Shown piece by piece: positions 1,406-45,557 of a stretch of DNA of 64,000 bases. The notes under the pieces are model-generated. The model searched no databases. It worked only from the letters and a program-made list of their open reading frames with translations, and was not told where the DNA came from. Each line of letters starts with the position of its first letter. Position 1 is the stretch's first letter. Where the stretch lies: positions 1 to 64,000 of the forward strand of contig NZ_NNRM01000047.1 in assembly GCF_002252525.1 (NCBI RefSeq). The letters are read 5' to 3'. The translations under genes and the position numbers were made by a program. Source of the DNA: Brucella pseudogrignonensis (GTDB lineage Bacteria; Pseudomonadota; Alphaproteobacteria; Rhizobiales; Rhizobiaceae).

Positions 1406-2788
1406 ATGTCTTATGCAGAGTTGTTGGCGCGTAAAAGCGCCGACGCCCCACTGCGCGGGCTTTCGTCTATTCCGTCATTGCATGAAGGCATGTTTGCTTA
1501 TCAGCGTGACGTAACCAAGTTTCTACTTGGTGTAGGCGGGGGTGCTGCGTTTCTGGATACCGGGCTTGGGAAAAGCTTTGTCGCATTAGAATGGGCGAGA
1601 GTAGTTTCAGAGCAGATCGGAAAGCCCGTTTTGATGCTGGCGCCGCTCGCTGTTGCGCCGCAGCACGTTCGAGAGGCGCAGAAATTCGGATACGAAGACG
1701 CGCGAGTTGTTCGTTCGCAAGACGATGTTGGACCGGGCATCAACGTCACTAACTACGCCAAAATCGATCATTTCGACCCTAGCGAGTTTGCGGGTGTGGT
1801 GCTTGATGAGTCCAGCATCATCAAGAATTTCAGTGGCCAGACAACCCGCAAAATGATTGCGATGTGGAAAGACACACCATTTCGTTTGGCATGCACCGCA
1901 ACGCCGGCGCCGAATGACCATATGGAGTTGGGCCAGCATTCGCAGTTCTTGGGCGTGATGAATTCCAACGAGATGCTAACTCGGTGGTTTATCGCCGATC
2001 AAACGAATATGGGCCGCTATCGTCTCAAGGGACACGCCGTAAAACCGTACTGGAGTTGGGTTGCGAGTTGGGCCAGATGCATTTCAAAGCCATCAGATAT
2101 CGGTTATTCCGACGAAGGTTTCGGACTCCCACCTTTGGAAACATTTCGACACGAGATCAGGGCCGACCTGAGTGTCGACGCGGGAGAAATGCTGTTTCGA
2201 ATTCCGGATACGAGCGCTACAGCCATTCACAAGGAAAAGCGCCTAACTGCCAACGCACGAGCCGAGGCAATTGCCGAGCAGGTGAATTCAGAGCGCTCTG
2301 AGCCTTGGGTTGTGTGGTGCGACACCGATTATGAAGCTGATGCTTTGACTAGCCGTATCCCCGATGCGGTTGAGGTTCGAGGATCGATGACTGACAAGGT
2401 TAAAGAAGATCGATTGGTTGGTTTCAGCGAAGGGAATATCCGCGTAATCGTCAGTAAGCCGTCAATCGCCGGTTTTGGATTGAACTGGCAGCACTGCGCC
2501 CGAATGGCATTTGTCGGGCTATCGTTCAGCTACGAGGCATATTACCAGTCAGTGCGTCGCTGCTACAGATTTGGGCAGAAACGCCCAGTTCATGTGCACA
2601 TTGCGCTAGCAGATACCGAACGAGCGATCTGGGACACAATCAATCGTAAGAGCGGCGATCACGAGCAAATGAAGAGCGAGATGTACGCAGCGATGCGTCG
2701 AGCTCATCAGAAACGCCAAGTCAAAATCAACTATCAGCCAACCACGCCTGTAAACTTGCCCGATTGGGTGAAGGGAGCTTCAGCATGA
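1406..2788 (+). CDS. SNF2/DEAD-like superfamily 2 helicase
   Basis: 460 aa. Motif I variant FLDTGLGKSFVALEWA (about residues 50-65), Walker B VVLDESS (about 132), motif III CTATPAPND (about 163), and motif VI QSVRRCYRFGQKRP near residue 380, which is the SNF2-type QxxxRxxRxGQ arrangement. ATP-dependent DNA translocase by family. It is too short to carry a nuclease. The stop overlaps the start of the next gene (ATGA), so helicase and methyltransferase are translationally coupled, a pairing seen in many phages. Preceded by the hairpin/ACACGAGGAG leader. Confidence 0.88.
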   Translation: MSYAELLARKSADAPLRGLSSIPSLHEGMFAYQRDVTKFLLGVGGGAAFLDTGLGKSFVALEWARVVSEQIGKPVLMLAPLAVAPQHVREAQKFGYEDARVVRSQDDVGPGINVTNYAKIDHFDPSEFAGVVLDESSIIKNFSGQTTRKMIAMWKDTPFRLACTATPAPNDHMELGQHSQFLGVMNSNEMLTRWFIADQTNMGRYRLKGHAVKPYWSWVASWARCISKPSDIGYSDEGFGLPPLETFRHEIRADLSVDAGEMLFRIPDTSATAIHKEKRLTANARAEAIAEQVNSERSEPWVVWCDTDYEADALTSRIPDAVEVRGSMTDKVKEDRLVGFSEGNIRVIVSKPSIAGFGLNWQHCARMAFVGLSFSYEAYYQSVRRCYRFGQKRPVHVHIALADTERAIWDTINRKSGDHEQMKSEMYAAMRRAHQKRQVKINYQPTTPVNLPDWVKGASA

Positions 2789-3726
2789 CCTATGTCCTAG
2801 ACCAAGCAGCCGGCGAAAAATGGGCGGCTTACAATGCAGATTGCGTGCCATTCACACAGGGTCTGCCTGATGCGTCGATAGATTTCAGTGTTTACTCCCC
2901 ACCGTTCTCTTCGCTCTACATCTATTCGGAGAGCGTAGCAGACATGGGAAACTGTGCGACGGACGATGAGTTCTTTGAGCAATACCGCTACTTGGTGCGC
3001 GAAAAACTTCGCGTGACCCGGCCGGGACGCCTCACTGCAATCCACGTCAAAGACCTAGTCTATTACCAGAATAGCAGTGAACGTGGCACAGCAGGTTTGC
3101 GTCCTTTTTCGGATGACTGTACCCGCCTCCATATTGAAGAAGGGTGGGATTTTCATTCGCGGATCACAATCTGGCGCGATCCAGTGCGGGAAATGCAAAA
3201 AACCAAAGCTCATGGGCTTCTTTGGAAAACACTTCGCGCTGACAGCACGTTTAGTCGAATGGGTATGCCTGAGTATTTGCTTGTTTTTCGGAAGTGGGCG
3301 AAGGATGGCGAAGAAGTTAAGCCCGTAACCCACACCAAAGAGAGTTTTCCAGTTACGGACTGGCAGGATCATGCGTCGCCAGTATGGAACTTTAGCAAGC
3401 AAGATTTGCCCGAGACTGATGTTCTGAATGTTAAGGTTGCCAGATCAGACAAGGACGAAAAACACCTTTGCCCCATGCCTCTAAACATCACAAAACGCGC
3501 ATTGCGTATGTGGTCAAATGCAGGCGACACCGTTTTTTCGCCGTTTATGGGAATTGGGTCTGAAGGATACGTTGCTCTGCAGAATAAGCGCCGCTTTATC
3601 GGCACAGAATTAAATCCCAACTACTTCAAACAAGCCGTGAAAAATCTAGGTGACGCCGCAGCTGTTGGCGAGGTTCCTAGCCTCTTTGGAGATAACGACA
3701 ACGTCGGGGCTGCAAATGCAGCCTGA
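2785..3726 (+). CDS. Site-specific DNA methyltransferase (beta class, N4/N6)
   Basis: 313 aa. Catalytic motif IV is VYSPPFSSLY near residue 35; the SAM-binding FxGxGS motif is FSPFMGIGSEGYVAL near residue 250, giving the motif IV-then-I order of beta-class enzymes. SPPF is commoner in N4-cytosine enzymes than N6-adenine enzymes, but the base is not certain. The ATG at 2785 is preferred over an upstream TTG because AAGGGAG lies 8 nt before it and ATGA couples it to the helicase. The C-terminus ends NDN plus seven residues, a tail shared with other genes here. Role: probably protects phage DNA from host restriction or alters regulation. Confidence 0.88.
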   Translation: MTYVLDQAAGEKWAAYNADCVPFTQGLPDASIDFSVYSPPFSSLYIYSESVADMGNCATDDEFFEQYRYLVREKLRVTRPGRLTAIHVKDLVYYQNSSERGTAGLRPFSDDCTRLHIEEGWDFHSRITIWRDPVREMQKTKAHGLLWKTLRADSTFSRMGMPEYLLVFRKWAKDGEEVKPVTHTKESFPVTDWQDHASPVWNFSKQDLPETDVLNVKVARSDKDEKHLCPMPLNITKRALRMWSNAGDTVFSPFMGIGSEGYVALQNKRRFIGTELNPNYFKQAVKNLGDAAAVGEVPSLFGDNDNVGAANAA

Positions 3727-4033
3727 CGACATCTGCCACGTCTGCTTCCGTCACGCCGTTGGACTCGGCGTCCAGGAACACAAAGAACCCATCCGCTGGC
3801 TATGCAAGGAATGCGCAGACATTGCTGAGCATATTCGATCGCGCCGCAGGATGGACCCTTACGAACTGCGCGCTCTTGATACCGGCGTTGAGGCGGTTGG
3901 GGAATTTTTGCAGTCCATACAGAAAACCGACCTTGCTGAGTGCGACGAGCTGGAAGCACGCATGCTGGTGAAAGCCGCATGGGAGGGCTGCGGGCGAGGG
4001 ATGCGGGAAGCTTTGAAGGAGGCGCCGTTCTAG
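3716..4033 (+). CDS. Small zinc-finger-like phage protein
   Basis: 105 aa from the ATG at 3716, overlapping the methyltransferase end by 11 bp. Two cysteine pairs, CHVC (about residue 7) and CKEC (about 29), suggest one zinc-binding knuckle followed by a helical region (MDPYELRALDTGVEAVGEF). It may belong to a DUF6511-type family, recalled but not searched. Same operon as helicase and methyltransferase by overlap. A longer in-frame start at 3650 is possible but lies inside the methyltransferase gene. Confidence 0.72.
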   Translation: MQPDDICHVCFRHAVGLGVQEHKEPIRWLCKECADIAEHIRSRRRMDPYELRALDTGVEAVGEFLQSIQKTDLAECDELEARMLVKAAWEGCGRGMREALKEAPF

Positions 4034-4518
4034 TTAGGTCCATCTTTGGAATGTGACGGTTGCTCACTATTCAGCTTTTTAAGCTTTTCGGTAAGCATCC
4101 CAGCTATGATGGCATCAGATATTCTTTGAATTTTGGCAATATCTGGATCATTCGCAAGAGCGGAGGATAATCCAATCCTCTTTTCAGCAAATGATACCGT
4201 TCCTACCTCTGCCCAAGTTGATCCCGTGACACCATCGATTTCAACGCCTGAATATTTTCGGAGAATGGACACAGCAAATCTGCGACTCTCTTGGGTTTTA
4301 TCACTTATCTCTCCACCAAGAATATTCAGAGCAAGCTTAACCATCTCTATGTCCGACTGACGATCCGTTGTGGCTTTCTGTAATGCCGCCACCTGCTTAT
4401 TTGAATCCGCTGCTGCAATAGCTGACTCTCTAGCAGCGGATCCTGACTGATACGCTGAATATGCTGATGCAACTGCTGCGATTAGCGCTGCACTGGCTGC
4501 CCATTTATTTCCGTCCAT
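4030..4518 (-). CDS. Membrane-anchored hypothetical protein
   Basis: 162 aa. One N-terminal hydrophobic helix (KWAASAALIAAVASAYSAY), then a coiled-coil stretch and a soluble domain containing ILGGEISDKTQESRRFAVSILRKYSGVEI-like sequence. The start is placed at 4518 because GAGGGG lies 4-6 nt before that ATG; an upstream ATG at 4572 has no such signal. Convergent with the zinc-finger gene, 4-bp overlap of stops. Opposite orientation to the surrounding operon suggests an independently expressed accessory gene. Confidence 0.6.
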   Translation of the reverse strand: MDGNKWAASAALIAAVASAYSAYQSGSAARESAIAAADSNKQVAALQKATTDRQSDIEMVKLALNILGGEISDKTQESRRFAVSILRKYSGVEIDGVTGSTWAEVGTVSFAEKRIGLSSALANDPDIAKIQRISDAIIAGMLTEKLKKLNSEQPSHSKDGPN

Positions 4519-4593
4519 TAGCCCCCTCACAAGTGGAGTGAAACATATCGTGTTTTTACCCAAACCGAACATGCTTAAGCAAGAGGCAGGCGC

Positions 4594-5775
4594 ATGACCG
4601 CCTACTACAATGAATTTGATCCGAAAGCTGCCGCTTGGCTGCGCGAGCTAATCAAAGCGGGGCACATAGCTCCGGGAGATGTTGATGAGCGTTCAATTGT
4701 CGATATTCGACCTGCCGACCTCGTCGGATACACACAATGCCACTTCTTTGCCGGGATCGGCGTCTGGTCCTACGCATTGCGCCGAGCAGGATGGCCCGAC
4801 GACCGTCCTGTCTGGACAGGTTCTTGCCCCTGCCAGCCTTTCAGCGCGGCAGGCAAAGGAGATGGGTTTGCTGACGAGCGGCACTTATGGCCGCACTTCC
4901 ACTGGCTTATTCAAAACTGCCGACCTGCAGTGGTCTTTGGCGAGCAGGTTGCGAGCAAGGACGGACTTGGCTGGCTCGACCTTGTACAAGCTGACCTGGA
5001 AGGATCGGGTTACACCAGCGGGGCGGTCGATACCTGCGCTGCGGGCTTCGGTGCGCCGCACATCAGACAAAGACTTTATTGGGTGGCCTACACCGACAAC
5101 GCGCGATCAAAAGGACGGGGCCAACCCGAACGTGAACGTACCCTTGAATGCCTTGTTGGGCCGTGTGGCTTGGTTGACGGGTTGGCCTACGACAACAACA
5201 ACAACGGATGCGCTGGGCAGCCGTCACCGGGGTTTCACAACTCCGAACATTACTTTGAACCATGCGGGGGCGGTGGCGTGCTGGAAAACCCCGTGCACTC
5301 CGAACGGCGGACGCAGCATGTCAACGGAGAAGATGGACGCGACGGGCAGGACGATCGACGGGAAGAAACACACGGCGTCATTGGAACACGAAGCGAAATT
5401 CTCAGGATGGCCGACACCAACAAGCAGCATGGCTACGCTCGGGGACATCGTGCAAGCCATGACCGCGGGCAACGCAACGAACCGTCCGAGTTACGAGAAG
5501 GCGAACGAACCGTTCTTCGGCCCCGCCCGACTAACGGCCTCTGGTCAGATGCTGACTGGCTCTTTTGCCGGGATGGAAAGTGGCGGCCAGTTGAACCCGG
5601 CACATTCCCGCTGGCTCATGGGGCTGCCGCCGGAGTGGGACGATTGCGCGGTTACGGCAATGCAATCGTTGCGCCCGCCGCGCAAGCCTTCATCGAAGCG
5701 TATCTCGAAACAGAGTTAGTCGCCGCGAACGACAACGAAATCAGGAAGCCTGACGCTTTGCCTCGAGCGTGTTGA
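4594..5775 (+). CDS. DNA (cytosine-5-)methyltransferase
   Basis: 393 aa. C5 methyltransferase motifs in order: [19 protein letters not shown] (about residue 50), [16 protein letters not shown] with catalytic Cys in PCQ (about 78), VI variant GEQVASKD instead of the usual ENV (about 110), [13 protein letters not shown] (about 150), and [12 protein letters not shown] near 355. The region between VIII and X (about 165-320) is low-complexity and hydrophilic where a target-recognition domain should be; there a second frame carries a conserved-looking protein (see nested gene at 4685). The C-terminus ends AANDN plus 12 residues. SD AAGAGGCAGG-like sequence lies just upstream. Confidence 0.88.
4685..5719 (+). 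CDS. Nested overlapping reading frame with GWPTPT motifs
   Basis: 344 codons in the +1 frame, wholly inside the C5 methyltransferase gene. The ATG at 4685 has GGGAG 6 nt upstream. The predicted protein starts [13 protein letters not shown], continues with [41 protein letters not shown], repeated GWPTPT-type motifs (about residues 135, 165 and 245), and ends with [20 protein letters not shown] recognise this pattern from stand-alone hypothetical phage proteins of unknown function. It may therefore be a true overlapping gene; alternatively that family is itself a shadow of methyltransferase genes. Codon evidence cannot separate the two by eye. Confidence 0.5.
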
Positions 5776-5950
5776 GAAGGTCGCTAAGTTCCTTGGCATC
5801 GCGGTAGTTCAGACCTACCGCCTGCCTAGATCCCATCTCGACTAGTTTTTGAGCTTTCTGATCAAACACTGACCAAGTGTCGTTTACTCCGTTCGATGTC
5901 TTGTAGCGTCCACCGATGTACCGTCCACCCGTTAATGTCGATCTGCTCAT
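5741..5950 (-). CDS. Small hypothetical phage protein
   Basis: 69 aa, no recognised family; middle part reads SVFDQKAQKLVEMGSRQAV. The start at 5950 is chosen because AAAGGA lies 7 nt before that ATG. The 3' end overlaps the end of the methyltransferase on the other strand by 35 bp, and the start is divergent from the primase gene, 35 bp away, so the gap probably holds back-to-back promoters. Confidence 0.55.
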   Translation of the reverse strand: MSRSTLTGGRYIGGRYKTSNGVNDTWSVFDQKAQKLVEMGSRQAVGLNYRDAKELSDLLNTLEAKRQAS

Positions 5951-5985
5951 GCGAGTCCTTTCAAGGAACGAATCAATTGAAAACA

Positions 5986-8178
5986 ATGAGTACAGCTATG
6001 GTTAATGCAGCGCAACCTTTGGTCAATGATGCTGACCCAATGCTCGACGTCGCGCTGTCGTACCAGGCGCAGAACTGGCCCGTATTTCCATGCCGGCATC
6101 GCGACGATGAATATGTCGATCAGGACGGCTGCATTGAGATCCTCGCCACCAAGACCCCGCTCACAAGCAACGGGTTCCGTGGCGCGACGCTGAATGAGCG
6201 CATCGTTCGCGAATACTGGCGCCGCAATCCTTCCGCTATGATCGGCGTGCCAACCGGTGCACCTATTGGCGCGTGGGTACTCGATATTGATCCGAAACAT
6301 GGTGGCGACGAAACGCTTGCAGCCCTTGAATTAACACACGGCGATCTGCCTGCAACCCTGACAGCAGAAACCACGAGCGGCGGCCGTCACTACTTCTTTC
6401 GTCACCGTCAGGGCGTTCGCAACCGCGGCGCTCTTGGCTCCGGCGTCGACGTGCGCGGTGACGGCGGTTATGTCATTGCGGCCGGGAGCGTGCCGGAGGT
6501 TGGCCTGCCTTATCGCTGGATATCAGAACAAGAGCCGGTCGACGCGCCAGACTGGTTGCTGGAGCTGGTGCTGCCACGCTCGTACGAGAGCACATACACT
6601 GCGGCGCCGTCTGTTAGCGGCAAGATCAATGACCGTTATGTCGAGCGTGCAGTTCAATCCGAGTTGGACGATCTTGCGCTTGAACCGATGGGCAACCGCA
6701 ACAACCGGCTGAATGACGCAGCGTTCCGTTTGGGCACTTTCGTCGGTGCAGGCGCTCTGGCTGAATCCGAGGCGCGCGCTCTGCTGCAAGATGTGGCACG
6801 AGGCTGGGGCCGAGATTGGCCGCGCTGCGTCAAGACCATCGACAACGGCCTTGCTGCCGGTGCGCGCAGCCCACGTAGCGTGCCGCAGAATGATAACGAC
6901 AACACGCGTCTGGTCGATATCAGCCGCATGATTGCCAATGGCTTGGCGAAAGCGGAGGCGCGCACAGACATCGTTGCAGAGCCAGTCACGGACTTTGATT
7001 CATCTATAAACGAACCGGAACAACCTACTGAAAGCAAACGTGCAATCATTGCAACGCCTTTTGTCTGGAAAGACCCGGCGACGCTTCCACGGCGCGAGTT
7101 TGCGTTTGGTAAGCACTTCATTCGCAAGTATGTTTCAGTGACGGTTGCCCCGGGAGGTCTCGGCAAAACTGCCAACAGCATCGTCGAAGCGCTGGCCATG
7201 GCGTCGGGTAAAGCGCTCAATGGCACGAAGCCGCCGAAGCGTCTTAAGGTCTGGTTATTCAATGCCGAAGATCCGCGCGACGAGCTTGAGCGCCGCATCA
7301 TGGCCGCGTGTATTCACTTCAATCTGAAGCCAGCGGATATCGTTGGGCATCTGTTTCTGGACACGGGCCGCGAGCAGGAATTGGTCATTGCGATCGATGA
7401 CAAGAAAGGCGTGCGCATTCAGGAGCCGGTCGTTGAAGCCGTAGTTGAAACGATCTCTGAGCTTGGCATTGACGTGATGATTGTTGACCCGTTCGTATCG
7501 ACGCACCAGGTCAATGAAAACGACAATGGCGCAATCGATAAGGTAGCCAAGCTTTGGGCGCAGGTCGCTGACCGGACGAACTGCTCAATCGATATTGTGC
7601 ACCATCTGCGTAAGGTGAGCGATCGTGAAGCTACGGTTGAAGATGCTCGCGGCGCTGTGTCCCTGATCGGTGCGGCACGCTCGGTGCGCGTGCTTAACCG
7701 TATGTCAGAAGCGCAAGCCAGTGAGGCTGGCCTTACACACGAAGCGCGGTTTTCATATTTCAGCGTGGTGTATGGCAAGTCGAACTTGTCGGCGCTTTCG
7801 CACAAGGCTGACTGGCGGAAGCTGGAAAGTGTCGCGCTGGGGAACGGGCAGGGCCTGACCAAGCCACAGGACCACGCACCGGTCGTGACCTCGTGGGCAT
7901 GGCCGACAAGCGAGGAAGTCGCTGAAACACTCACCGAAGACGAACGCGACGCAATCCGTGGCGTTGTGAACGGCGGCATGTACAAACCGGCGCCGCAGGC
8001 CAAGGAATGGGTAGGGCGTGCCGTTGCATATGCACTGCAGCTAGACGTTGACGAGGAGACAGATAAGAAGCGTGTCGGCATGATCACCAAGGCGCTGTTC
8101 GCCGAAGGCTTCCTAATGAAGGTGGAAGACCGCGACCCTGTTCAACGCAGGGCGACGACGTTTGTTCGAGCGATGTGA
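5986..8178 (+). CDS. Replication protein: Prim-Pol domain fused to RepA-like AAA ATPase
   Basis: 730 aa. Residues about 15-200 match the bifunctional primase/polymerase (archaeo-eukaryotic primase) fold: WPVFPCRH, GVPTGAPIGAWVLDIDPKHGG with the catalytic DID, and GGRHYFFRHR. Residues about 350-590 are a RecA-type ATPase of the RepA/AAA_25 kind: Walker A APGGLGKTANS, Walker B VMIVDPFVS, and IDIVHHLRK. Acts as primase plus replicative helicase for phage DNA. ATG at 5986 (or 5998) replaces an upstream in-frame start inside the opposite gene. Contains PQNDNDN in the linker between domains. Followed by an iteron-like region, fitting an origin close by. Confidence 0.9.
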   Translation: MSTAMVNAAQPLVNDADPMLDVALSYQAQNWPVFPCRHRDDEYVDQDGCIEILATKTPLTSNGFRGATLNERIVREYWRRNPSAMIGVPTGAPIGAWVLDIDPKHGGDETLAALELTHGDLPATLTAETTSGGRHYFFRHRQGVRNRGALGSGVDVRGDGGYVIAAGSVPEVGLPYRWISEQEPVDAPDWLLELVLPRSYESTYTAAPSVSGKINDRYVERAVQSELDDLALEPMGNRNNRLNDAAFRLGTFVGAGALAESEARALLQDVARGWGRDWPRCVKTIDNGLAAGARSPRSVPQNDNDNTRLVDISRMIANGLAKAEARTDIVAEPVTDFDSSINEPEQPTESKRAIIATPFVWKDPATLPRREFAFGKHFIRKYVSVTVAPGGLGKTANSIVEALAMASGKALNGTKPPKRLKVWLFNAEDPRDELERRIMAACIHFNLKPADIVGHLFLDTGREQELVIAIDDKKGVRIQEPVVEAVVETISELGIDVMIVDPFVSTHQVNENDNGAIDKVAKLWAQVADRTNCSIDIVHHLRKVSDREATVEDARGAVSLIGAARSVRVLNRMSEAQASEAGLTHEARFSYFSVVYGKSNLSALSHKADWRKLESVALGNGQGLTKPQDHAPVVTSWAWPTSEEVAETLTEDERDAIRGVVNGGMYKPAPQAKEWVGRAVAYALQLDVDEETDKKRVGMITKALFAEGFLMKVEDRDPVQRRATTFVRAM

Positions 8179-8268: not shown

Positions 8269-8685
8269 ATGAGTATGAATGGTTTAAGCTGGGCGTCTAT
8301 TCGACAGATGGTTGCACCAGCCGTTAAGGCGAAAACTAACGGGAAATGCTATTACTGTGGCGTCAATCTTGATGGCGTATTTGACGTTGAGCACTTGGTT
8401 CCACAAGCCAGAGGCGGCACCCATGCGCTTAAGAACCTTGTTCCATCATGCAAACCGTGTAACAGCGAAAAAGGGGCAAAATCGCTCGAAGATTGGCGCG
8501 ATTACAAGCATATGCTGATTGCATGTCGAGACTATCGCTTGCCATCTTTCAATTCTCGACAAGTGTCATGGCTTCGCTCTCAAGGATTCGAGCCATATGA
8601 GTCGGTCCCTAAACCAACATTCTGGTTCGAAATGGAGCGGACTGCTCACAACGATAACGGTCCATTGTCAGAAATTGCAGCTTAA
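8269..8685 (+). CDS. HNH endonuclease
   Basis: 138 aa. Zinc-binding CYYCG (about residue 25) and CKPCN (about 64) flank the HNH core FDVEHLVPQARGGTHALKNLVPSC-type sequence (EH at about 44). The family cuts double-stranded DNA. SD GGAGAG 5 nt before ATG. A palindrome GAACGTTC lies 35 bp upstream. Ends AHNDN plus eight residues. Likely a replication or homing-type nuclease; a separate HNH gene near the terminase is the better candidate for packaging. Confidence 0.88.
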   Translation: MSMNGLSWASIRQMVAPAVKAKTNGKCYYCGVNLDGVFDVEHLVPQARGGTHALKNLVPSCKPCNSEKGAKSLEDWRDYKHMLIACRDYRLPSFNSRQVSWLRSQGFEPYESVPKPTFWFEMERTAHNDNGPLSEIAA

Positions 8686-9017: not shown

Positions 9018-9566
9018 ATGACACGAAGAAGTGCGCTGAAAGGCGCGTCTATTTCCAAACCTGCAGCAAAGACAAAAGCCACAACCCAGACCGTGCGCAT
9101 TAATGGCGTCCGGACGATCATCACGACACGCGATGGCAAGGTGACGACAAAAGCTGCCTTGCCTCTGGAATGGGAACTGCAAGCTGCGCAGGTCCGGGCA
9201 TTACGCAGATTACCAGAATACATTCACACAGCGAAAGACGTTCGACCGGGTACATTCACGCTGGCGGGTGATCAGAACGCAGCCAAGCGCGGCACCAAGG
9301 CGAGAGCAGAGGCATTAGCTGCAGGACTGACGCCAGGAGAAGCAGACGTCCGGATCTATCTCTACGGAGGTGTACTGCGGCAGATTGAAAACAAGGTCGG
9401 CAAGGCCAAGCTCGAACCAAGCCAGATAAGCCGTCATCCGTTACTTGAAGCTCTTGGCTTTCCCATCGTGGTCGTCAGGGCGGTGACCGAAGAAGATGCA
9501 GCGGAGCAGGCCGTGAGGCTGGTTAAAGGCTGGCTGAGTGAAAGCGCGACATACCAAGCCGCGTGA
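9018..9566 (+). CDS. VRR-NUC-type nuclease
   Basis: 182 aa. The C-terminal half reads GEADVRIYLYGGVLRQIENK, matching the PD-(D/E)xK core of VRR-NUC enzymes (D then E-x-K), followed by PSQISRHPLLEALGFPIVVV. VRR-NUC proteins act on branched DNA structures. The N-terminal 60 residues are basic and probably disordered. Place in the replication block suggests recombination or replication-fork processing. Confidence 0.82.
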   Translation: MTRRSALKGASISKPAAKTKATTQTVRINGVRTIITTRDGKVTTKAALPLEWELQAAQVRALRRLPEYIHTAKDVRPGTFTLAGDQNAAKRGTKARAEALAAGLTPGEADVRIYLYGGVLRQIENKVGKAKLEPSQISRHPLLEALGFPIVVVRAVTEEDAAEQAVRLVKGWLSESATYQAA

Positions 9567-9590: not shown

Positions 9591-9956
9591 ATGAGCAATG
9601 CATTAACAAACAAAATCATCCCTGAAGGCTTCTATTGGTCAAAGTTGTGCGGAATGGCTTTAAGGAAGAGACACCTTGGATCACCGGTCACGGTAGAACG
9701 GCACACCATGGCCCCAAATTCTTTGTTGAGGCGGGTACTTGCAGAAATATCGCCTGTCGAGAACGACGCGAATGAAGCCAAAAAACTGACATCAGAAGAC
9801 GCTTCCCGTTACGGTTCCGCATTGTGGTCTGGTAAATTGAAAGAATACTTCTCTTGGAGAGCGGAGCAAGGTTTGTCGTGGTGGCATGAACAAGAGCGCC
9901 TTTATCCTTCCGCAGCAAATGACAATTCGACGGTAGCAGTCAGGAAGGCGGCATGA
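9591..9956 (+). CDS. Hypothetical phage protein
   Basis: 121 aa, no recognised fold; aromatic-rich (SGKLKEYFSWRAEQGLSWWHEQ). SD AACACGAGGAG spaced 8 nt from ATG, the same core as other early genes but without a convincing hairpin. Ends AANDN plus nine residues. Overlaps the next gene by 4 bp (ATGA). Confidence 0.72.
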   Translation: MSNALTNKIIPEGFYWSKLCGMALRKRHLGSPVTVERHTMAPNSLLRRVLAEISPVENDANEAKKLTSEDASRYGSALWSGKLKEYFSWRAEQGLSWWHEQERLYPSAANDNSTVAVRKAA

Positions 9957-10861
9957 GCAGGCACAAGTCCCTTGCCGGAGCCATGGCTGCTTTGATGGCT
10001 TACAAAAACCGGCCTGAAAGCGAAATCATACCCGTTTCAACAAACTGGAATGTCTTACCCGCGAATGACAATGAGCCTGAAGTGCTGGCACAAATGCATA
10101 CAGAGCGACGCATCCAGATACTTCCGACCGTTGAGGAAATCATGCGAAATGTCGACAGTGAGGACATCGAGCGCAATGATCTAGGTCAGATCGTTCGTAT
10201 AGGTCGGCTGAAATTTAGCGATGGTACGCAAGTTGAGGCAGGGCATAAATACGGACCAGGTGGCGAGGTAATCGCCACTAAACATCGTATGCCAGCTGGT
10301 GCAATGCTTGGATGCCGCGAACAGGAGAGCAGAACGCTCGGTGGAGATGAAAACCCGTCTGAAGTTGCAGCAAGTAATAGCTACTTTCTAGCTGCGTTCG
10401 AATTGAAGCGCCGAGAGCGTATTCCATCAGGAAAAAAGACAAAGCGCTCGTACCAAACGCATGACGAGGCGAAAAAGGATCTCGCAAAGGCGTACGCAAA
10501 CACGCCAGAGCTGCCGCCAGTAATTAAATGTCCGCCCGGTCTGCCCAATGCAGGCAACCGCATTGGTGACAGCTTTCTCGGAATGAAGAAAACGACAACC
10601 GGTGAATCGGGTTCAATGGGTTGGCAGGATGTTTCTACTGCGCTGGTAGATCGCGAGATATGGGCCCAAGCCATCGAGGCGCTATCTGAGAGGGATAGAA
10701 CGGCAATGGATACGGCGGCACATGGGAAGGTGAGGAACTACGAAGGGTTAGGAATATCTTTGGGCTTCAAGCCAGAATATTCGAGACGGAGGGGTGGACG
10801 GAAGGCTCTGACAGCCGCGAATGATAACCTCCAAGAAAATATAAAAAGATTTTCTGCTTAG
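9953..10861 (+). CDS. Hypothetical phage protein with possible C-terminal DNA-binding region
   Basis: 302 aa. Contains PANDNE near residue 38 and AANDN ten residues before the C-terminus. The C-terminal 80 residues (ALSERDRTAMDTAAHGK, YEGLGISLGFKPEYSRRRGGRKAL) have a helical, basic, HTH-like look, but no family is recognised. As last gene of the early operon, just before structured RNA and the late region, a role as late-gene activator or antiterminator is possible; this is inference only. Confidence 0.68.
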   Translation: MSRHKSLAGAMAALMAYKNRPESEIIPVSTNWNVLPANDNEPEVLAQMHTERRIQILPTVEEIMRNVDSEDIERNDLGQIVRIGRLKFSDGTQVEAGHKYGPGGEVIATKHRMPAGAMLGCREQESRTLGGDENPSEVAASNSYFLAAFELKRRERIPSGKKTKRSYQTHDEAKKDLAKAYANTPELPPVIKCPPGLPNAGNRIGDSFLGMKKTTTGESGSMGWQDVSTALVDREIWAQAIEALSERDRTAMDTAAHGKVRNYEGLGISLGFKPEYSRRRGGRKALTAANDNLQENIKRFSA

Positions 10862-11227: not shown

Positions 11228-11315
11228 GGAAGGTTGGCAGAGCGGCTTAATGTAGCGGGTTGCTAACTCGTCGGGCGGCAACGTCCCGTAGGTTCAAATC
11301 CTACACCTTCCGCCA
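11228..11315 (+). tRNA. tRNA-Ser(GCT)
   Basis: 88 nt with encoded CCA. Acceptor GGAAGGT/ACCTTCC, anticodon loop TTGCTAA, long variable arm (CGGGCGGCAACGTCCCG), T-arm GTAGG-TTCAAAT-CCTAC, discriminator G. Phage-encoded, standing before the late region. AGC/AGU serine codons are the target. Confidence 0.93.
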
Positions 11316-11320
11316 TTCAT

Positions 11321-11395
11321 AGCAGGATAGAGAAGCAGCATCTCATCTGGTTCATACCCAGAAGAACGCCGGTGCAAGTCCGGCTCCTGCAACCA
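11321..11395 (+). tRNA. tRNA with CAT anticodon (Met-like, atypical)
   Basis: 75 nt, CCA encoded, 5 nt after tRNA-Ser. Stem TCTGG/CCAGA with loop TTCATAC gives anticodon CAT. The acceptor GCAGGA/TCCTGC has an A-A mismatch at position 1-72, the D-loop is only about seven bases and lacks GG, and the T-loop is TGCAAGT rather than TTCRAAT. Could be elongator Met, or Ile2 if the C34 is modified; the unpaired 1-72 recalls initiators, but the GGG/CCC anticodon stem of initiators is absent. Confidence 0.78.
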
Positions 11396-39525: not shown

Positions 39526-39530
39526 ACTGT

Positions 39531-40814
39531 ATGTCCAATGACAGACAGCGGGCGAACACGCGCCTTTCAAAACAAGAACTAACCCGCCGTGTTGCTGCGT
39601 ATCAGCAGCACGGCACGATAACGAAGGCTGCGGCCGCATGTGGCATCAAGAAGTCTGCATTTCACGACAGCATTAAACGCGCGGCTGAGCTTGGGTTGAT
39701 GGGTCCGAAGGAAACGCTGCCCGGCTATGCAATCAAAAGCCTGACCGAAACGCCTAACGGCACCTACATGCGCCAGACGAAAGAGGCTGGCCCTGTTTAT
39801 GAAGCGACTGCCGGTCTAGCGGTCAAAGGCAAGACGACGCTCGTTAACAGCGAAGGCCGCATCGTCACTCAGCACATCATGGAACGCGCGGACGCCGACC
39901 AACAGCGTGCAGCAATCACGGCCATGGTTGAAGCGATAAAAGAAGATTTGCCGCGCGTTTCGATTATGCCGGCGCCAAAGGGGTGTCGCGAGGATCTGTT
40001 GAATCAGTTCACGATCACTGACAACCATTTCGGCATGATGTCGTGGCGCGAAGAAACTGGCAGCGATTACGATCTGCGGATTGCCGAGCAGCTATTGCTT
40101 GATTGGTTCTCTGCGGCTGTGGCACAGGCTCCCGACGCTCATACGGCCATTCTGGCGCAGTTGGGCGACCTTATGCATCACGATGCACTTGAAAGCGTCA
40201 CGCCTGCCCACAAGCATGTTCTGGACGCGGATAGCCGCCTCCAGAAAGTCATTCGCATTGTGATCCGCACGATCCGCCGCATAATTGATATGCTGTTGCA
40301 GAAGCATGAGCGGGTTCATGTAGTAATGGCGTCGGGCAACCATGACCCAGCCTCATCTGCATGGCTGCGTGAAATGCTGGCCGTACTGTACGAGAACGAG
40401 CCGCGCATCACTGTTGATAATTCACCCAGCCTCTATTACGCCTTCGAGTGGGGCAGCACGATGCTGGCCTATCACCACGGGCATAAGCGCGGTGTCGCAA
40501 ATATCGAGGGCACGATTGCAGGCATGTTTCGCGGGATGTTCGGTCGCTCACTACAAGCCTACGTGCATATAGGTCACAGACACAGCGACGATGCCAGAAA
40601 AGGCACGCTGATGTATGTCGAGCAGCATGAAACGCTCGCGGCACCAGACGCTTATGCAGCTGGCGGCGGGTGGCTGTCAGGCCGATCAGCAAAGCGAATA
40701 ACCTATAGCAAGCAGTTCGGTGAAGTCGGTCGCGACATTCTACGGCCCGAGATGGTCGCAGGTAAGTATGCGGCGGCAAATGATAATGCGGAAAGTCAAA
40801 GGGCTGCAGCCTAA
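39531..40814 (+). CDS. Metallophosphoesterase with N-terminal HTH-like region
   Basis: 427 aa. Residues about 10-60 look like a helix-turn-helix (YQQHGTITKAAAACGIKKSAFHDSIKRAAELG). The phosphoesterase motifs follow: ITDNHFG (D-x-H), LGDLMHHDALE (GD), ASGNHDP, YHHGHKRG and HIGHRH. Metal-dependent hydrolysis of a phosphoester; nucleic acid or nucleotide substrates are likely in a phage. Fusion of DNA-binding and phosphoesterase domains is notable. Ends AANDN plus eight residues. Confidence 0.86.
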   Translation: MSNDRQRANTRLSKQELTRRVAAYQQHGTITKAAAACGIKKSAFHDSIKRAAELGLMGPKETLPGYAIKSLTETPNGTYMRQTKEAGPVYEATAGLAVKGKTTLVNSEGRIVTQHIMERADADQQRAAITAMVEAIKEDLPRVSIMPAPKGCREDLLNQFTITDNHFGMMSWREETGSDYDLRIAEQLLLDWFSAAVAQAPDAHTAILAQLGDLMHHDALESVTPAHKHVLDADSRLQKVIRIVIRTIRRIIDMLLQKHERVHVVMASGNHDPASSAWLREMLAVLYENEPRITVDNSPSLYYAFEWGSTMLAYHHGHKRGVANIEGTIAGMFRGMFGRSLQAYVHIGHRHSDDARKGTLMYVEQHETLAAPDAYAAGGGWLSGRSAKRITYSKQFGEVGRDILRPEMVAGKYAAANDNAESQRAAA

Positions 40815-40817
40815 CTG

Positions 40818-41158: not shown

Positions 41159-41163
41159 AGAAT

Positions 41164-42118: not shown

Positions 42119-42336
42119 GTAGCTGGCAGCGAATGGAAACTGCGCCTTTAGATGGGACTGAGGTCGATCTGTGGACGAACTTTGGACGCATAACCGGCTG
42201 CGCATTCACTCACCATCATTGGCTTAATGGCGAGCCCGTGGGTGAAATGGGCTGGTTCGACGAGCGCTTTGACGGTGGAATGCCACCCGTACCAACTCAT
42301 TGGATGCTGCCGCCAGCACCGCCGGAGGATATGTGA
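42115..42336 (+). CDS. DUF551-like small protein
   Basis: 73 aa. SWQRMETAPLDGTEVDLWTN ... THWMLPPAPP matches the W-xM-x-TAPxDG ... HWxxLP pattern of the DUF551 family, common in phage early operons, function unknown. ATGA with the previous gene. Confidence 0.72.
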   Translation: MSSWQRMETAPLDGTEVDLWTNFGRITGCAFTHHHWLNGEPVGEMGWFDERFDGGMPPVPTHWMLPPAPPEDM

Positions 42337-42698
42337 TGGTGCCAGATGCAAGAATTGACCGTGAGATCGCGCGTGGAGAGTTGGATAAACCTAAGGTGCC
42401 TATGCCGAAGCCTTTGCATTTAACTGCTCTTGGCATGCGATCCTGCAGTGCGATCAAATCCGACGGCGGCTCAACCAGCTATTATGAACTGCCTGAAGGT
42501 GCGAGCGAACTAAACGATCTTATTGAACACAAACGCATGTCCTTTGCGCTCGGTAACATCTTTAAGGCTTGCTATCGTTTTGGAGAGAAGGACGCGGCCA
42601 GTCGCCTTTACGATCTGAATAAGATCATCTTCTTTGCTGAAAGATTGAAGGCGATCGAGCTGCGCGCCAAAAATCGCACGGCTATAATTACAATCTAA
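42336..42698 (+). CDS. DUF3310-like protein
   Basis: 120 aa. ELPEGASELNDLIEHKRMSFALGNIFKACYRFGEKDAASRLYDLNKIIFFAERL fits the DUF3310 pattern (FxxGNxxK-Y.. R-G-K) often found near nucleotide-metabolism genes of phages. ATG overlaps the previous stop. Followed by a strong terminator, so this ends the operon. Confidence 0.68.
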   Translation: MVPDARIDREIARGELDKPKVPMPKPLHLTALGMRSCSAIKSDGGSTSYYELPEGASELNDLIEHKRMSFALGNIFKACYRFGEKDAASRLYDLNKIIFFAERLKAIELRAKNRTAIITI

Positions 42699-42789
42699 GT
42701 TATTTTAACCGCACATTAACCTTGATAGCATTTACTAAGTTGGCTGGCTGATCCAACCCGTACCGATCCCTCCCGCCGGCGAAAACCCA

Positions 42790-42825
42790 AAAAACCCGCT
42801 CAGATAATTTACTGGGCGGGTTTTT
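42790..42825 (+). terminator. Intrinsic terminator
   Basis: AAAACCCGCTC ... GGGCGGGTTTTT: a nine- to ten-base stem with poly-T on + and A-tract on the left, so it works in both directions and separates the + operon from the minus-strand genes on its right. Confidence 0.8.
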
Positions 42826-42876
42826 CGTATCCATTAAATAAAATAACCCTACCGAGGCGGGGTCAGCTTAACCAAG

Positions 42877-43161
42877 TTACTTTTTCGGTGGGCCAACGCG
42901 ATCGAGCAACTTGTAGACGATCTCAGCACAGTCGCTCGTTGACTCATCCTCAGAGCATTTCACGTCTACCTTGAAGCCCTTATCCTCAACGCGAATGTGT
43001 GCTGACTTTTCGGGAGGAGGCGGTCCTCTGTGTGGCGGCGGCGGTGGGGGCGTCCCCGGTGCTTCTGTAGATGGAGGTGCAGGTGGCTTAGGCGGCTCCT
43101 GCGCTAGTGCAGAGCTTGAAATCATAGCGAGTGCAGCGGCAGCAATAAGGACGATCTTCAT
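42877..43161 (-). CDS. Secreted proline-rich small protein
   Basis: 94 aa. Signal peptide MKIVLIAAAALAMISSSALA, a proline-rich spacer (about residues 22-52), and a C-terminal domain with two cysteines (VDVKCSEDESTSDCAEIVYKLLD) probably disulphide-linked. Periplasmic or surface-exposed. AGGAGT SD upstream. Unusual content for a phage gene; may modify the lysogen's envelope. Confidence 0.7.
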   Translation of the reverse strand: MKIVLIAAAALAMISSSALAQEPPKPPAPPSTEAPGTPPPPPPHRGPPPPEKSAHIRVEDKGFKVDVKCSEDESTSDCAEIVYKLLDRVGPPKK

Positions 43162-43260
43162 TGCATTACTCCTAGGGGTGTTTGCTCAGGAGAAACATGC
43201 GGACGAACCTTAGGTTCCTAGGCGAGTTGATCATATTTTTATGATTGCTGCCTGCAATAA

Positions 43261-43294
43261 AAAGCCCCGGCACGTCTCCCAACGTCACGGGGCT
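43261..43294 (-). terminator. Terminator-like hairpin of the same family (unit 10)
   Basis: AGCCCCG/CGGGGCT with an inner ACGT/ACGT extension, A-tract on the left. Here a minus-strand operon ends about 170 bp to the right, so its function as minus-strand terminator is plausible. A further GC-rich stem at 43,423-43,440 (CCCCG/CGGGG) lies closer to that gene. Confidence 0.65.
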
Positions 43295-43460
43295 GCGCAC
43301 GTGGGCATGACCCGTATTCCTCCACGCGGCGCGGCGATAATTTATCAAAGAGAATTATCGTTGAAAAGTGTATTTTAACTCTGTTGGACCGTGCCAGAGA
43401 TGCGATGCCTGAATAAAACTGAACCCCGCTTTGACGGGGGGTTGGGTTTCAGGTGTTTTG

Positions 43461-43700
43461 TTATTCCATGTCTGGGATCTCGCCAAACTGAAAAATAATG
43501 GCTGGAGGTCCATATTCACCAATATCTGGATCGGCTTCCCGGCTCCAAGCGACAATCCCTGAATGCTTTCCTTCGAGACTAGTCGCAGCTTTCATTGCAC
43601 GGCCTTCGGTCTCAAACGACATTGGATCGAATGCGGGAACGAGCTCACCGTCATCATTCTTATCAAAGGCAGCAACCACGATCAGACGCGCATTAGCCAT
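43461..43700 (-). CDS. Hypothetical protein of SOS-box operon
   Basis: 79 aa. ANARLIVVAAFDKNDDGELVPAFDP ... EGRAMKAATSLEGKHSGIVAWSREADPDIGEYGPPAIIF: compact alpha/beta protein, no family recognised. Five bp after the stop of the small gene upstream; both lie downstream of a LexA-type box. Confidence 0.65.
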   Translation of the reverse strand: MANARLIVVAAFDKNDDGELVPAFDPMSFETEGRAMKAATSLEGKHSGIVAWSREADPDIGEYGPPAIIFQFGEIPDME

Positions 43701-43705
43701 TTAGG

Positions 43706-43840
43706 TCACTTCCCGTTGGTATCTTCGTCGAGATCGGAATTATCGCGGTTCGACGGCCCACCTGCTTTTTTCGAACCTTTGGCTTTACCTGTTTTAGGCT
43801 CTACTGGGCGGACAGGGGTGTTCGTAAACTTAATTGCCAT
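43706..43840 (-). CDS. 44-aa small basic protein
   Basis: MAIKFTNTPVRPVEPKTGKA followed by a lysine/glycine segment and an acidic end (DNSDLDEDTNGK). ATG lies 31 bp downstream of the SOS box and its stop 5 bp before the next gene, so it is the first gene of the operon. Too short to be found by common length cut-offs. Confidence 0.58.
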   Translation of the reverse strand: MAIKFTNTPVRPVEPKTGKAKGSKKAGGPSNRDNSDLDEDTNGK

Positions 43841-43870
43841 GAGTCTTTCTAATTCGTCTTCGCTTCGGAT

Positions 43871-43885
43871 GTTCCTATAATGTTC
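43871..43885 (-). promoter_or_regulatory. LexA (SOS) box, alphaproteobacterial type
   Basis: GTTC-CTATAAT-GTTC, a direct repeat GTTC-N7-GTTC, the established LexA box of alphaproteobacteria. It lies 31 bp before the ATG of the 44-aa gene. The following gene-free stretch to 44,201 holds unit 11 hairpin and nothing else visible. Confidence 0.75.
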
Positions 43886-44054
43886 TCATTCTACTCGAGA
43901 GTCAATTGGCGTTATCATCGCTAAGATATCACTTAGGAAACGCGCCGATGAATGTTCGAATGGGATTACGTTCGATGCCATAGCCAGTTTTGCCGCGATT
44001 GCATATCGACTGGCCGGAATTCGAGGGGTGCAGATATCCAACTCAACAACAAAA

Positions 44055-44092
44055 AGCCCCGGCACGAGAGGTGTGATCGAGTGGCCGGGGCT
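44055..44092 (-). terminator. Terminator-like hairpin of the same family (unit 11)
   Basis: Perfect 9-bp AGCCCCGGC/GCCGGGGCT, A-tract on the left, no T-tract on the right, 110 bp downstream of the minus-strand gene at 44,202. Fits a terminator of that gene. Confidence 0.7.
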
Positions 44093-44201
44093 GCGCTTCG
44101 CCTGGACCCAGCTTCCTGTCACGAAGCGCGGCAAAATTTTATCAAAATGATCTCGTTTTGGAAGAGAAAAAAGTTCATAAGTCTACACGCACATACGCAG
44201 A

Positions 44202-44390
44202 TCACTTCTCTTTTTTCTCGACCTCATCCAACTTTCTTAAGAGCTCATCGAACTTGTCTGCTGCATCACGATCTGCATCATGAATTTCTATTAACCCAAG
44301 ACCGATTGCTCGACTAGCTTCATTGAGTTGAGGGTGTTTCAAGGATTTGTTTTTTCTAGCCGCGTTGATTAGATCATTATGAATAGGCAT
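44202..44390 (-). CDS. Small helical hypothetical protein
   Basis: 62 aa from ATG 44390 (AGCAGG 6 nt upstream). MPIHNDLINAARKNKSLKHPQLNEASRAIGLGLIEIHDADRD, then an EEVEKKEK-type acidic coiled coil. No family recognised. Confidence 0.5.
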   Translation of the reverse strand: MPIHNDLINAARKNKSLKHPQLNEASRAIGLGLIEIHDADRDAADKFDELLRKLDEVEKKEK

Positions 44391-44470
44391 TAGGCCTGCT
44401 TTCAACTGGAGGGCGCAGGCTGAACATCCAGAAGAAAGCTTTGTTCCAAAATAAAAAAATAGTTAGCTAA

Positions 44471-44740
44471 TTAACCTGTTTTGGACCAGTTGGCGTTATC
44501 TAAGCCCGCATTCAAAAACTCATTCGCATGCTTTTCTGCAAGCCTTGCAGCTAGTTCCGCCCACTTTTCCATATTTCTAAGTCCACCATCGTACAGTTTG
44601 ATGATAGTCTCTGCTAAGTGCGCTTCGTCGTATTCCCTGCCGCTTTCTTCCAACATAATAGAGGCAATAGAGAAGCAACGTCGCATCGCTTCCAGTTCGT
44701 CAGGGGCATACACTTTGCTGGATTGACTGAACAATGGCAT
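44471..44740 (-). CDS. Helical hypothetical protein
   Basis: 89 aa. APDELEAMRRCFSIASIMLEESGREYDEAHLAETIIKLYDGGLRN reads as a helical bundle. SD GAGGAGG is very good. May form an operon with the 62-aa gene. Function unknown. Confidence 0.6.
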   Translation of the reverse strand: MPLFSQSSKVYAPDELEAMRRCFSIASIMLEESGREYDEAHLAETIIKLYDGGLRNMEKWAELAARLAEKHANEFLNAGLDNANWSKTG

Positions 44741-44879
44741 CTTATCCTCCTCGGGATAGCGGAAGTCTCCCCTCCATTTTTACGAGCGAAAGTGCATACT
44801 GATACTTAAGGTGTATCATATCAACCTTTATGTGCCTGAGTGACTATTTGCTCGGATCGGTATGCTCTTACCGCACCAG

Positions 44880-45557
44880 TCAAAACAGACTAGTTTGTTC
44901 TTCCTTATTGTCATTGCTTGGCGTCAGGTCGATCAAGTCTACATCTGGTAGTGGCTTTTGCATCTCCTTCGCTTCATCCCATGGCGCACGCAACCACGCG
45001 TCGATCTCCTCGGTCGTGCGTAGGATTACCGGCATCGCTTTCGGGTGAATAGGTTTGACCACGGCGTTAGGTTCGGTGGTCAGGAAGGCAAAGATATCAA
45101 CTTCGACCGGCCCTTCTTTTTTCTTCCGCACGCCCTTCCAAATCGTCCAGATGCCAGCAAAGACAAAAAGCGGCTTCGCCTCGTTTAGAGCGAACCAGTG
45201 CAGAGGCTTGCGTTTGGTCTTTGGATCGGGTTCTTGCCCATATTCGGAGAAGGATGTGGCAGGTACAACGCAACGGCTTTCAACGCCTTGCCACCGACGC
45301 CAATGGGGTGACGTGAGGTTGCGAATATTCGTCACACCGCTGTCGGCTTCACCCTTAACGTACATAGGTGGCGTCGGCATTCCCCACCGAAGATGTGCAA
45401 GCTCGTGCTCACCATCTGCCATGTTGCGCAGGACCGGGGCTGGATAGTCTGGATAGACATCTAACTGCGGATCGACGCGGTTCGTCACATCTCCGAACTT
45501 CGGAAACAGACGGCGCATGGCTTCATGTGCCGTAGTGAGGTTGTAAAGATTGCACAT
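44880..45557 (-). CDS. SRAP (SOS response-associated peptidase, YedK/HMCES family)
   Basis: 225 aa. ATG 45557 with AGGAGG 5 nt upstream gives the required N-terminal Met-Cys: MCNLYN. Cys2 is the residue that crosslinks abasic sites. Also present: LRWGMPTPP, RCVVPATSFSEYGQ with the conserved Glu, and HPKAMPVIL with the active-site His. Shields abasic sites in single-stranded DNA. The C-terminus NDNKEEQTSLF combines the NDN tail with a QxSLF end that resembles a sliding-clamp motif. Last gene of the minus-strand operon headed by a LexA box. Confidence 0.92.
   Translation of the reverse strand: MCNLYNLTTAHEAMRRLFPKFGDVTNRVDPQLDVYPDYPAPVLRNMADGEHELAHLRWGMPTPPMYVKGEADSGVTNIRNLTSPHWRRWQGVESRCVVPATSFSEYGQEPDPKTKRKPLHWFALNEAKPLFVFAGIWTIWKGVRKKKEGPVEVDIFAFLTTEPNAVVKPIHPKAMPVILRTTEEIDAWLRAPWDEAKEMQKPLPDVDLIDLTPSNDNKEEQTSLF

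What the first reader, a model, noticed from the sequence alone, without database searches (positions are those of the whole stretch)
2785..45557. NDN tripeptide 7-12 residues from the C-terminus of seven unrelated phage proteins
NDN followed by 7 (methyltransferase 2785), 12 (C5 methyltransferase 4594), 8 (HNH 8269), 9 (gene 9591), 10 (gene 9953), 8 (phosphoesterase 39531) and 8 (SRAP 44880) residues. It is usually AANDN, PSNDN or AHNDN. Codons differ (GAC/GAT, AAC/AAT), so it is kept at protein level. Internal copies also occur in 9953 and the Prim-Pol linker. None occurs in structural genes. From usual residue frequencies such a tripeptide in this place should be rare, so seven cases suggest a shared tail with a common partner, degradation signal or localisation role.
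Basis: seen in the sequence. Interest (0 to 1): 0.85.

Follow-up and report, generated by a model that had tools for sequence, protein, structure and literature searches.

The report
Phage proteins ending in rescue-tag mimics
Several DNA-handling proteins of this prophage, and of many related viruses of soil bacteria, end in what looks like a built-in copy of the host's 'destroy me' tag, which suggests that the virus uses its host's protein disposal machine to keep its own enzymes short-lived.

Summary
Seven prophage proteins carry NDN 7-12 residues from the end. Composition shuffles never reach seven (0 of 3000). In 0.95 Mb of the same genome outside the window, 2 of 1105 ORFs have it, both in a phage-like stretch.

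The tail matches the host's ssrA (tmRNA) degradation tag, (A)ANDNKAQGYALAA; 29 of 29 related tags read begin ANDN. The host has the adaptor SspB.

In related viral DNA 65 of 2994 protein clusters have NDN 5-13 residues from the C-terminus, 9 from the N-terminus. It is the most enriched tripeptide there in two sets, and tailed proteins end in AA more often. ANDN and the last A persist while spacers and codons vary. Lambdoid phages lack it, as do 13 of 13 exonuclease homologues of beta/gamma hosts.

Best reading: gene-encoded ssrA-like degrons, docked by SspB and destroyed by ClpXP. Binding and degradation are untested, and several phages of alpha hosts lack tails. Mycobacteriophages have single-protein precedents; several tailed proteins with an adaptor dock looks new.

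The parts
3688..3723 (+). C-terminal tail GDNDNVGAANAA of the N4/N6 DNA methyltransferase 2785-3726
   Evidence: Pfam PF01555 covers residues 32-286 of 313; NDN in last 24 residues of 10 of 12 distinct homologues (the window's own viral record included), 10 end AA
5722..5772 (+). C-terminal tail AANDNEIRKPDALPRAC of the C5 DNA methyltransferase 4594-5775 (does not end in AA)
   Evidence: 24 of 62 distinct homologues have NDN in the last 24; the more distant homologues that were printed end without it
8644..8682 (+). C-terminal tail AHNDNGPLSEIAA of the HNH endonuclease 8269-8685
   Evidence: 3 of 3 distinct homologues
9912..9953 (+). C-terminal tail AANDNSTVAVRKAA of gene 9591-9956; 14 residues, the length of the host tag with its non-templated first A, same first five and last two residues
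   Evidence: 10 of 10 distinct homologues
10814..10858 (+). C-terminal tail AANDNLQENIKRFSA of gene 9953-10861 (phrog_36072, unknown function)
   Evidence: 13 of 13 distinct homologues
40773..40811 (+). C-terminal tail AANDNAESQRAAA of the DNA repair exonuclease (phosphoesterase) 39531-40814
   Evidence: 37 of 40 distinct homologues; residues 411-427 predicted below pLDDT 50
44883..44921 (-). C-terminal tail PSNDNKEEQTSLF of the SRAP protein 44880-45698; ends in a clamp-binding-like QxSLF (likeness recalled), not AA
   Evidence: 23 of 28 distinct homologues have NDN in the last 24, none of the 28 ends AA
10064..10072 (+). internal NDN of gene 9953 (about residue 38), present in six of the seven distinct patterns printed, missing in one
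6889..6903 (+). NDNDN in the Prim-Pol/ATPase linker of 5896-8178; an NDN is kept there in all printed homologues but one
46585..47727 (+). tyrosine integrase: marks the element as a temperate prophage; host-type genes follow it

Best explanation
The tails are gene-encoded mimics of the host's ssrA (tmRNA) degradation tag. ANDN is the docking site for the alpha-proteobacterial adaptor SspB. The short variable spacer and the terminal A/AA are the part that ClpX pulls towards ClpP. The phage puts this bipartite degron on several of its mostly non-virion proteins, above all DNA methyltransferases and nucleases, so that they are short-lived. This would keep leaky expression from the prophage harmless and limit the time of action of DNA-modifying enzymes in lytic growth. 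Shown: the motif, its position, the enrichment, conservation, match to the host tag, presence of SspB, and a low-confidence (probably flexible) tail in the exonuclease model. Inferred: SspB binding, ClpXP degradation and the purpose.
For: Host tag ANDNKAQGYALAA with NDN followed by 9 residues; 29 of 29 related tags read begin ANDN and end AA; host SspB gene about 2.5 kb past ssrA, nearest solved relatives by sequence 2nys and 2qas/2qaz. Viral set 1: 29 of 2170 clusters with NDN 5-13 from the end against 2.7 expected (p 2.7e-20), first of all tripeptides; 19 of 29 end AA against 101 of 2141 others (p 4e-18). Set 2 (only clusters not in set 1): 35 of 824 against 4.4 (p 5.6e-20), first again; 19 of 35 end AA against 65 of 789. 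C-terminal 65 against N-terminal 9 of 2994. Some tails are close to the tag (L138 AANDNFAETANAA, L107 AANDNFESAAVAA). Tails follow complete cores: several homologues without a tail stop near where it begins. In 32 distinct exonuclease tails the last residue is always A and the second-last A or V, while NDN codons use 7 combinations in 39 genes. Not in lambdoid phages. Exonuclease residues 411-427 have pLDDT below 50. Published E. coli work: AANDENY is needed for SspB binding and ALAA for ClpX (PMC8512704, passages).
Against: No binding or degradation data. Two window tails do not fit the ClpX half: 4594 ends RAC and 44880 ends SLF. AANDENY alone binds SspB without degradation, and in E. coli cells reporters with ALAA were still strongly reduced in an sspB deletion (PMC8512704, passages), so SspB dependence may be modest. 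AA also ends 8 of 13 tail-less beta/gamma exonucleases, so in that family AA is not tied to the tail. Some phages of alpha hosts lack tails in what was read: RHph_X2_26 0 of 95 and 0 of 24 ORFs, Mesorhizobium P1 0 of 53, RHph_N28_2 0 of 51, Y5A 0 of 53, Dinoroseobacter R4C 0 of 42; 16 of 47 loci of set 2 have none. 19 of 49 exonucleases from alpha or unassigned hosts lack NDN in the last 30 residues (one of these has ANDN further in and one has ANDD). SspB is in 59 of 60 genomes of the phylum, so its presence does not explain why only some phages use the motif. Two portal proteins carry tails.
Confidence: 0.78

Rival explanations
1. The tail docks SspB and recruits ClpX as an unfoldase that remodels phage replication and modification complexes, as ClpX does for MuA (recalled), without degradation.
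For: Tails sit mostly on DNA-metabolism proteins (28 of 40 scanned); some tails lack the terminal AA (4594, 44880).
Against: Terminal AA, part of what the ClpX pore binds in ssrA, is strongly enriched in tailed proteins; nucleases and methyltransferases need no remodelling that I know of.
Confidence: 0.08
2. The tail is an SspB decoy: many tailed proteins titrate SspB/ClpXP and protect other phage or tmRNA-tagged proteins from the protease.
For: Several tailed proteins per phage: 7 in the window, 5 in the 50 kb of NV1.1.1 and 4 in the 50 kb of 16-3 that were read.
Against: A decoy would do better without the terminal AA; enzymes are poor decoys; virion proteins, the most abundant, mostly lack it.
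Confidence: 0.05
3. The motif binds a different alpha-proteobacterial partner (a phage replication protein or the sliding clamp) and only resembles the ssrA tag by chance.
For: Clamp-like Q.[DSN][LI]F lies in the last 40 residues of 3 of 65 tailed clusters against 5 of 2929 others; internal NDN copies exist in 9953 and Prim-Pol.
Against: The match to the host tag covers the ANDN core, the distance to the end and, in many, the last residues; 62 of 65 tailed clusters have no such clamp-like motif.
Confidence: 0.05
4. Chance or composition, or shared descent of a few genes.
For: Proteins in this window have more NDN in all (13 in 19,127 aa against 10 in 106,027 host aa).
Against: Shuffles, control tripeptides, the N-terminal control and many different PHROG families.
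Confidence: 0.02

Closest known systems
tmRNA-encoded ssrA tag with SspB and ClpXP (alpha-proteobacterial form)
   Same: ANDN start, A/AA end in most, NDN 8-9 residues from the end in the tags read; host has alpha tmRNA and SspB
   Different: Here the tag is part of the gene and permanent, on intact functional proteins, with a variable spacer; not added on stalled ribosomes
ssrA-like tags of mycobacteriophage repressors in integration-dependent immunity (PMC9934374 passages; Broussard et al. 2013 only as cited there)
   Same: Phage-encoded C-terminal tag ending AA that makes a phage protein unstable
   Different: There the passages describe one repressor per phage, an AA end, and removal of the tag by integration. 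Here several proteins per phage, an added SspB-docking half, alpha-proteobacterial hosts, and no removal
Cellular SspB substrate RseA fragment of E. coli (table in PMC8138137, passage)
   Same: A natural protein delivered by SspB to ClpXP, C-terminal degron ending VAA
   Different: The listed RseA sequence has no AND core; it is exposed by cleavage
Phage-encoded SspB of Pseudomonas phage pf16 (PMC5587285 passages)
   Same: A phage touching the SspB branch of host proteolysis
   Different: pf16 carries the adaptor; the phages here carry the docking tag, and no SspB was found in 5199 viral ORFs

Membership tests
ssrA-like bipartite degron (SspB dock plus ClpX signal) | Begins with the host tag's adaptor-binding core (ANDN) | tested here: met
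   Host and 29 of 29 related tags read begin ANDN. Of the seven window tails four are ANDN; the others are HNDN, SNDN and DNDN
ssrA-like bipartite degron (SspB dock plus ClpX signal) | C-terminal AA (or A) read by ClpX | tested here: inconclusive
   4 of 7 window tails end AA, 5 of 7 end A; enriched in sets 1 and 2; 4594 and 44880 fail
ssrA-like bipartite degron (SspB dock plus ClpX signal) | Spacing between dock and C-terminus like the tag | tested here: met
   Host tag 9 residues after NDN; merged clusters peak at 7-10
ssrA-like bipartite degron (SspB dock plus ClpX signal) | Flexible, exposed tail | tested here: inconclusive
   One protein modelled: exonuclease residues 411-427 below pLDDT 50, with short low-confidence helices
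ssrA-like bipartite degron (SspB dock plus ClpX signal) | Binds SspB | not testable with these tools
   needs peptide binding
ssrA-like bipartite degron (SspB dock plus ClpX signal) | Degraded by ClpXP, faster with SspB | not testable with these tools
   needs degradation assay
tmRNA tagging product | Tag templated by tmRNA, not by the gene | tested here: not met
   The letters are encoded in the genes with varied codons; no tmRNA in the window
Mycobacteriophage integration-dependent immunity tag | Tag on the repressor, cut off at attP on integration | tested here: not met
   The five tailed window genes with recognised families are DNA-related, none an integrase or repressor; two are unknown; the tails are present in the prophage state

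The most novel reading that the evidence does not exclude
These phages hard-wire the host's ribosome-rescue tag into a whole set of early enzymes as a post-translational regulon. Because SspB/ClpXP capacity is shared with tmRNA-tagged proteins, translational stress that floods the system would spare the tailed phage enzymes. Enzyme stability would then report host stress and help the prophage switch to lytic growth.
Probability: 0.15. Interest if true: 0.9.

Novelty: new variant of a known kind. Interest (0 to 1): 0.77.

Why it matters
Natural substrates of the SspB adaptor are few (my recollection). Here a simple sequence rule predicts a large set, in phages of easily grown rhizobia such as 16-3. 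It would show phages using a host quality-control tag as a general stability code, would make short protein life a predictable trait of phage DNA methyltransferases and nucleases, and would supply ready-made degrons for alpha-proteobacteria. It also warns that C-terminal tags or truncations of these proteins in the laboratory could change their stability.

Tried and rejected
Gamma counterpart: in lambdoid phages (80 best of 478 relatives, so closely alike) NDE, the E. coli tag's letters, was 0 within 5-13 residues and NDN 2, both chance-like. Lifestyle: tails at first looked temperate-only. 16-3 (int and attP) and TM3_3_14B (integrase) have them; X2_26 has no annotated integrase in its whole record and no tails; Y5A shows none in the 37.5 of 69.4 kb read; of TM3_3_9 only 3.2 kb was read. 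But N28_2, Mesorhizobium P1 and R4C have annotated integrases and no tails in what was read, so lifestyle alone does not explain it. 'Never structural' was dropped after two portals. A nucleotide-level cause (overlapping start or binding site) was rejected because wobble positions vary. Phage-encoded SspB: none in 5199 ORFs by phmmer with the host protein. Literature: ten searches of the held library listed no paper that I recognised as reporting ANDN or SspB tails on alpha-proteobacterial phage proteins; most subscription papers are not held, so this is weak.

Dropped or biased rows: ORFs are greedy longest-first predictions, not annotations. Clusters were made by shared 5-mers at 25%. Set 1 loci were fetched with tail-bearing genes as queries, two of the search patterns held NDN letters, and the set includes the window's own viral record and overlapping loci of the same contigs (clustered). 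Set 2 used the X2_26 Prim-Pol; one pattern held an internal NDN. Host stretches were partly chosen around ANDN sites, which works against my reading. Hosts were sorted by me from record titles; one unassigned locus (L420) is counted with the alpha hosts, and L404 looks like a broken or wrong frame. PHROG scans covered 20 of the 30 tails listed and 20 of 35.
Full report
Observation. The window holds a temperate prophage: terminase, portal, protease, capsid, tape measure, endolysin and, at 46585-47727, an integrase, followed by host-type genes from about 49 kb. Of the tailed genes, five have recognised families (N4/N6 methyltransferase, C5 methyltransferase, HNH, SRAP, DNA repair exonuclease) and two are of unknown function. 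The tails lie after the recognised domain in the exonuclease (13-409 of 427), SRAP (48-251 of 272) and N4/N6 methyltransferase (32-286 of 313).

Chance. Greedy ORFs of 60 aa or more: 7 of 83 in the window against 0 of 384 on host contig C49; fourteen other tripeptides give 0-1 in the window. For 70 prophage ORFs, composition shuffles never reached 7 in 3000 (mean 0.04), nor did last-30 shuffles (mean 0.06); 0 of 36 predicted ORFs lie in the structural and lysis block and 7 of 34 outside. Over 949,507 bases of the same genome outside the window, 2 of 1105 ORFs (50 aa or more) have such a tail, against 7 of 78 in the prophage (Fisher 1.4e-7). Both are in one stretch of contig C48, where two other ORFs match a phage single-strand binding protein and a phage helicase. 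The genome has 48 ANDN-coding sites in any frame (29 for the pattern read backwards), the window's own among them. Thirty were read; none lay 4-15 residues from the end of a long frame, the three at 11-14 residues being in open frames of 45-86 aa.

What it matches. The host's alpha tmRNA encodes ANDNKAQGYALAA, to which the charged alanine adds a first A (the added A is established knowledge). Tags of 29 relatives, all that were read out of 37 other genomes with a match, begin ANDN and end AA. Gene 9591 ends AANDNSTVAVRKAA: same length as the tag, same first five and last two residues. The host has SspB close to ssrA, related by sequence to the solved chains 2nys and 2qas/2qaz (Agrobacterium and Caulobacter, species recalled). 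In E. coli the AANDENY half of the tag is needed for SspB binding and ALAA for ClpX; AANDENY alone binds but is not degraded, and a longer extension can replace ALAA. In cells, ALAA reporters were still strongly reduced without SspB (PMC8512704, passages).

Related phages. Four scans of viral contigs with tailed window genes gave 173 loci, 3987 ORFs and 2170 clusters. NDN lies 5-13 residues from the end in 29 clusters against 2.7 expected from the interior; it is the most enriched of all tripeptides there, and ANDN of all tetrapeptides (21 against 1.1). 19 of the 29 end AA against 101 of 2141 others. A second set fetched with a different gene, counting only clusters not in the first, gave 35 of 824 against 4.4, NDN again first, 19 of 35 ending AA against 65 of 789; 31 of its 47 loci have at least one tail. 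Merged, 65 of 2994 clusters have it at the C-terminus and 9 at the same distance from the N-terminus, with a peak at 7-10 residues.

Conservation. Within set 1, NDN is in the last 24 residues of 37 of 40 distinct exonuclease homologues, 10 of 10 for 9591, 13 of 13 for 9953, 3 of 3 HNH, 23 of 28 SRAP, 10 of 12 N4/N6 methyltransferase and 24 of 62 C5 methyltransferase homologues; neighbours Prim-Pol (0 of 16) and 9018 (0 of 20) lack it (each count includes the window's own viral record). In 32 distinct exonuclease tails the last residue is always A, A precedes N in 28, and the spacer varies in length (7-10) and letters. The NDN codons use seven of the eight possible combinations in 39 exonuclease genes. 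The exonuclease model (mean pLDDT 73, 12 sequences) has its last 17 residues below 50.

Hosts. The exonuclease family in named genomes: NDN in the last 30 residues in 30 of 49 from alpha or unassigned hosts and 0 of 13 from beta/gamma hosts (Fisher 5.6e-5). The latter mostly stop where the tail would begin, and 8 of 13 end AA there. In all ORF clusters of these loci, 13 of 1239 (alpha) and 0 of 359 (beta/gamma) have tails; this difference was not tested. Phage 16-3, NV1.1.1, AP-16-3, X2_25 and TM3_3_14B have the tail on the exonuclease; X2_26, Y5A and TM3_3_9 lack it. Phage 16-3 also has it on its Cas4-type exonuclease, a methyltransferase and an HNH gene, with a double NDN further in on its helicase. 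Lambdoid phages (80 loci, 506 clusters) show no NDE and two chance-like NDN. Among 40 tailed proteins scanned with PHROGs at E 1e-20, 18 match DNA methyltransferases (three of them as second hit), 10 other DNA metabolism, 2 portals, 1 PAPS reductase and 9 nothing or unknown families.

Mechanism. The best reading is a permanent, gene-encoded ssrA-like degron: SspB holds ANDN, ClpX takes the C-terminal A/AA, ClpP destroys the protein. Why a phage should want this is inferred: methyltransferases and nucleases can harm a lysogen if expressed at a low level, and short life confines their action. Tails without AA (4594, 44880) may dock more than they degrade.

Limits. Binding and turnover are untested. 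Several phages of alpha hosts have no tails in what was read, and neither lifestyle nor SspB presence (59 of 60 genomes) explains who has them. The AA end is partly a property of the exonuclease core. Sets were chosen by phage genes, not at random.

Known or new. Mycobacteriophage repressors with ssrA-like AA tags are known (PMC9934374, passages), and one phage SspB is reported (PMC5587285, passages). A paper on a 16-3-like phage has no hit for tmRNA, ssrA, C-terminal, degradation or ClpX (PMC10460002, term search), and one on phiLM21-like prophages none for ssrA, C-terminal, ClpX, degron or SspB and one for tmRNA in its references (PMC12429752, term search). I call it a new variant of a known kind.

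Noticed in passing
window 44880-44921; L129:8777-9679; L463:6514-7404; L122 and L140 methyltransferases: A sliding-clamp-binding-like motif (QxSLF, QDSIF; consensus recalled) lies in or beside several tails; Q.[DSN][LI]F in the last 40 residues of 3 of 65 tailed against 5 of 2929 other clusters. Fork-tethered proteins that are also degradable would be worth testing.
   Followed up: partly
L242:17804-19561; L196:36810-38543; L194:2780-4522: Three long proteins, two matched or annotated as helicases, end in an SSB-like acidic tip (DDDIPF, DDEVPF; likeness recalled) preceded by two NDN copies.
   Followed up: no
window 9018-9566 and homologues: Neighbour gene without NDN: 19 of 20 distinct homologues end AA, a possible adaptor-free ClpX signal.
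   Followed up: no
G000 C48:261229-281228 (L242): A second phage-like stretch at a contig end with two tailed ORFs, a single-strand binding protein and a helicase.
   Followed up: partly
G000 contigs C23, C30, C32, C36, C39 (L212, L215, L220, L223, L224, L227): The same short frame FEVRLANDN recurs near contig ends, as expected of a repeat that broke the assembly.
   Followed up: no
window 11228-11395: The prophage carries tRNA-Ser(gct) and tRNA-Met(cat) genes side by side; NV1.1.1 also has a tRNA-Met.
   Followed up: no
window 7519-7527 and Prim-Pol homologues: The third NDN of Prim-Pol lies in a fixed VNENDN within the ATPase domain and is probably structural, not a tag.
   Followed up: partly
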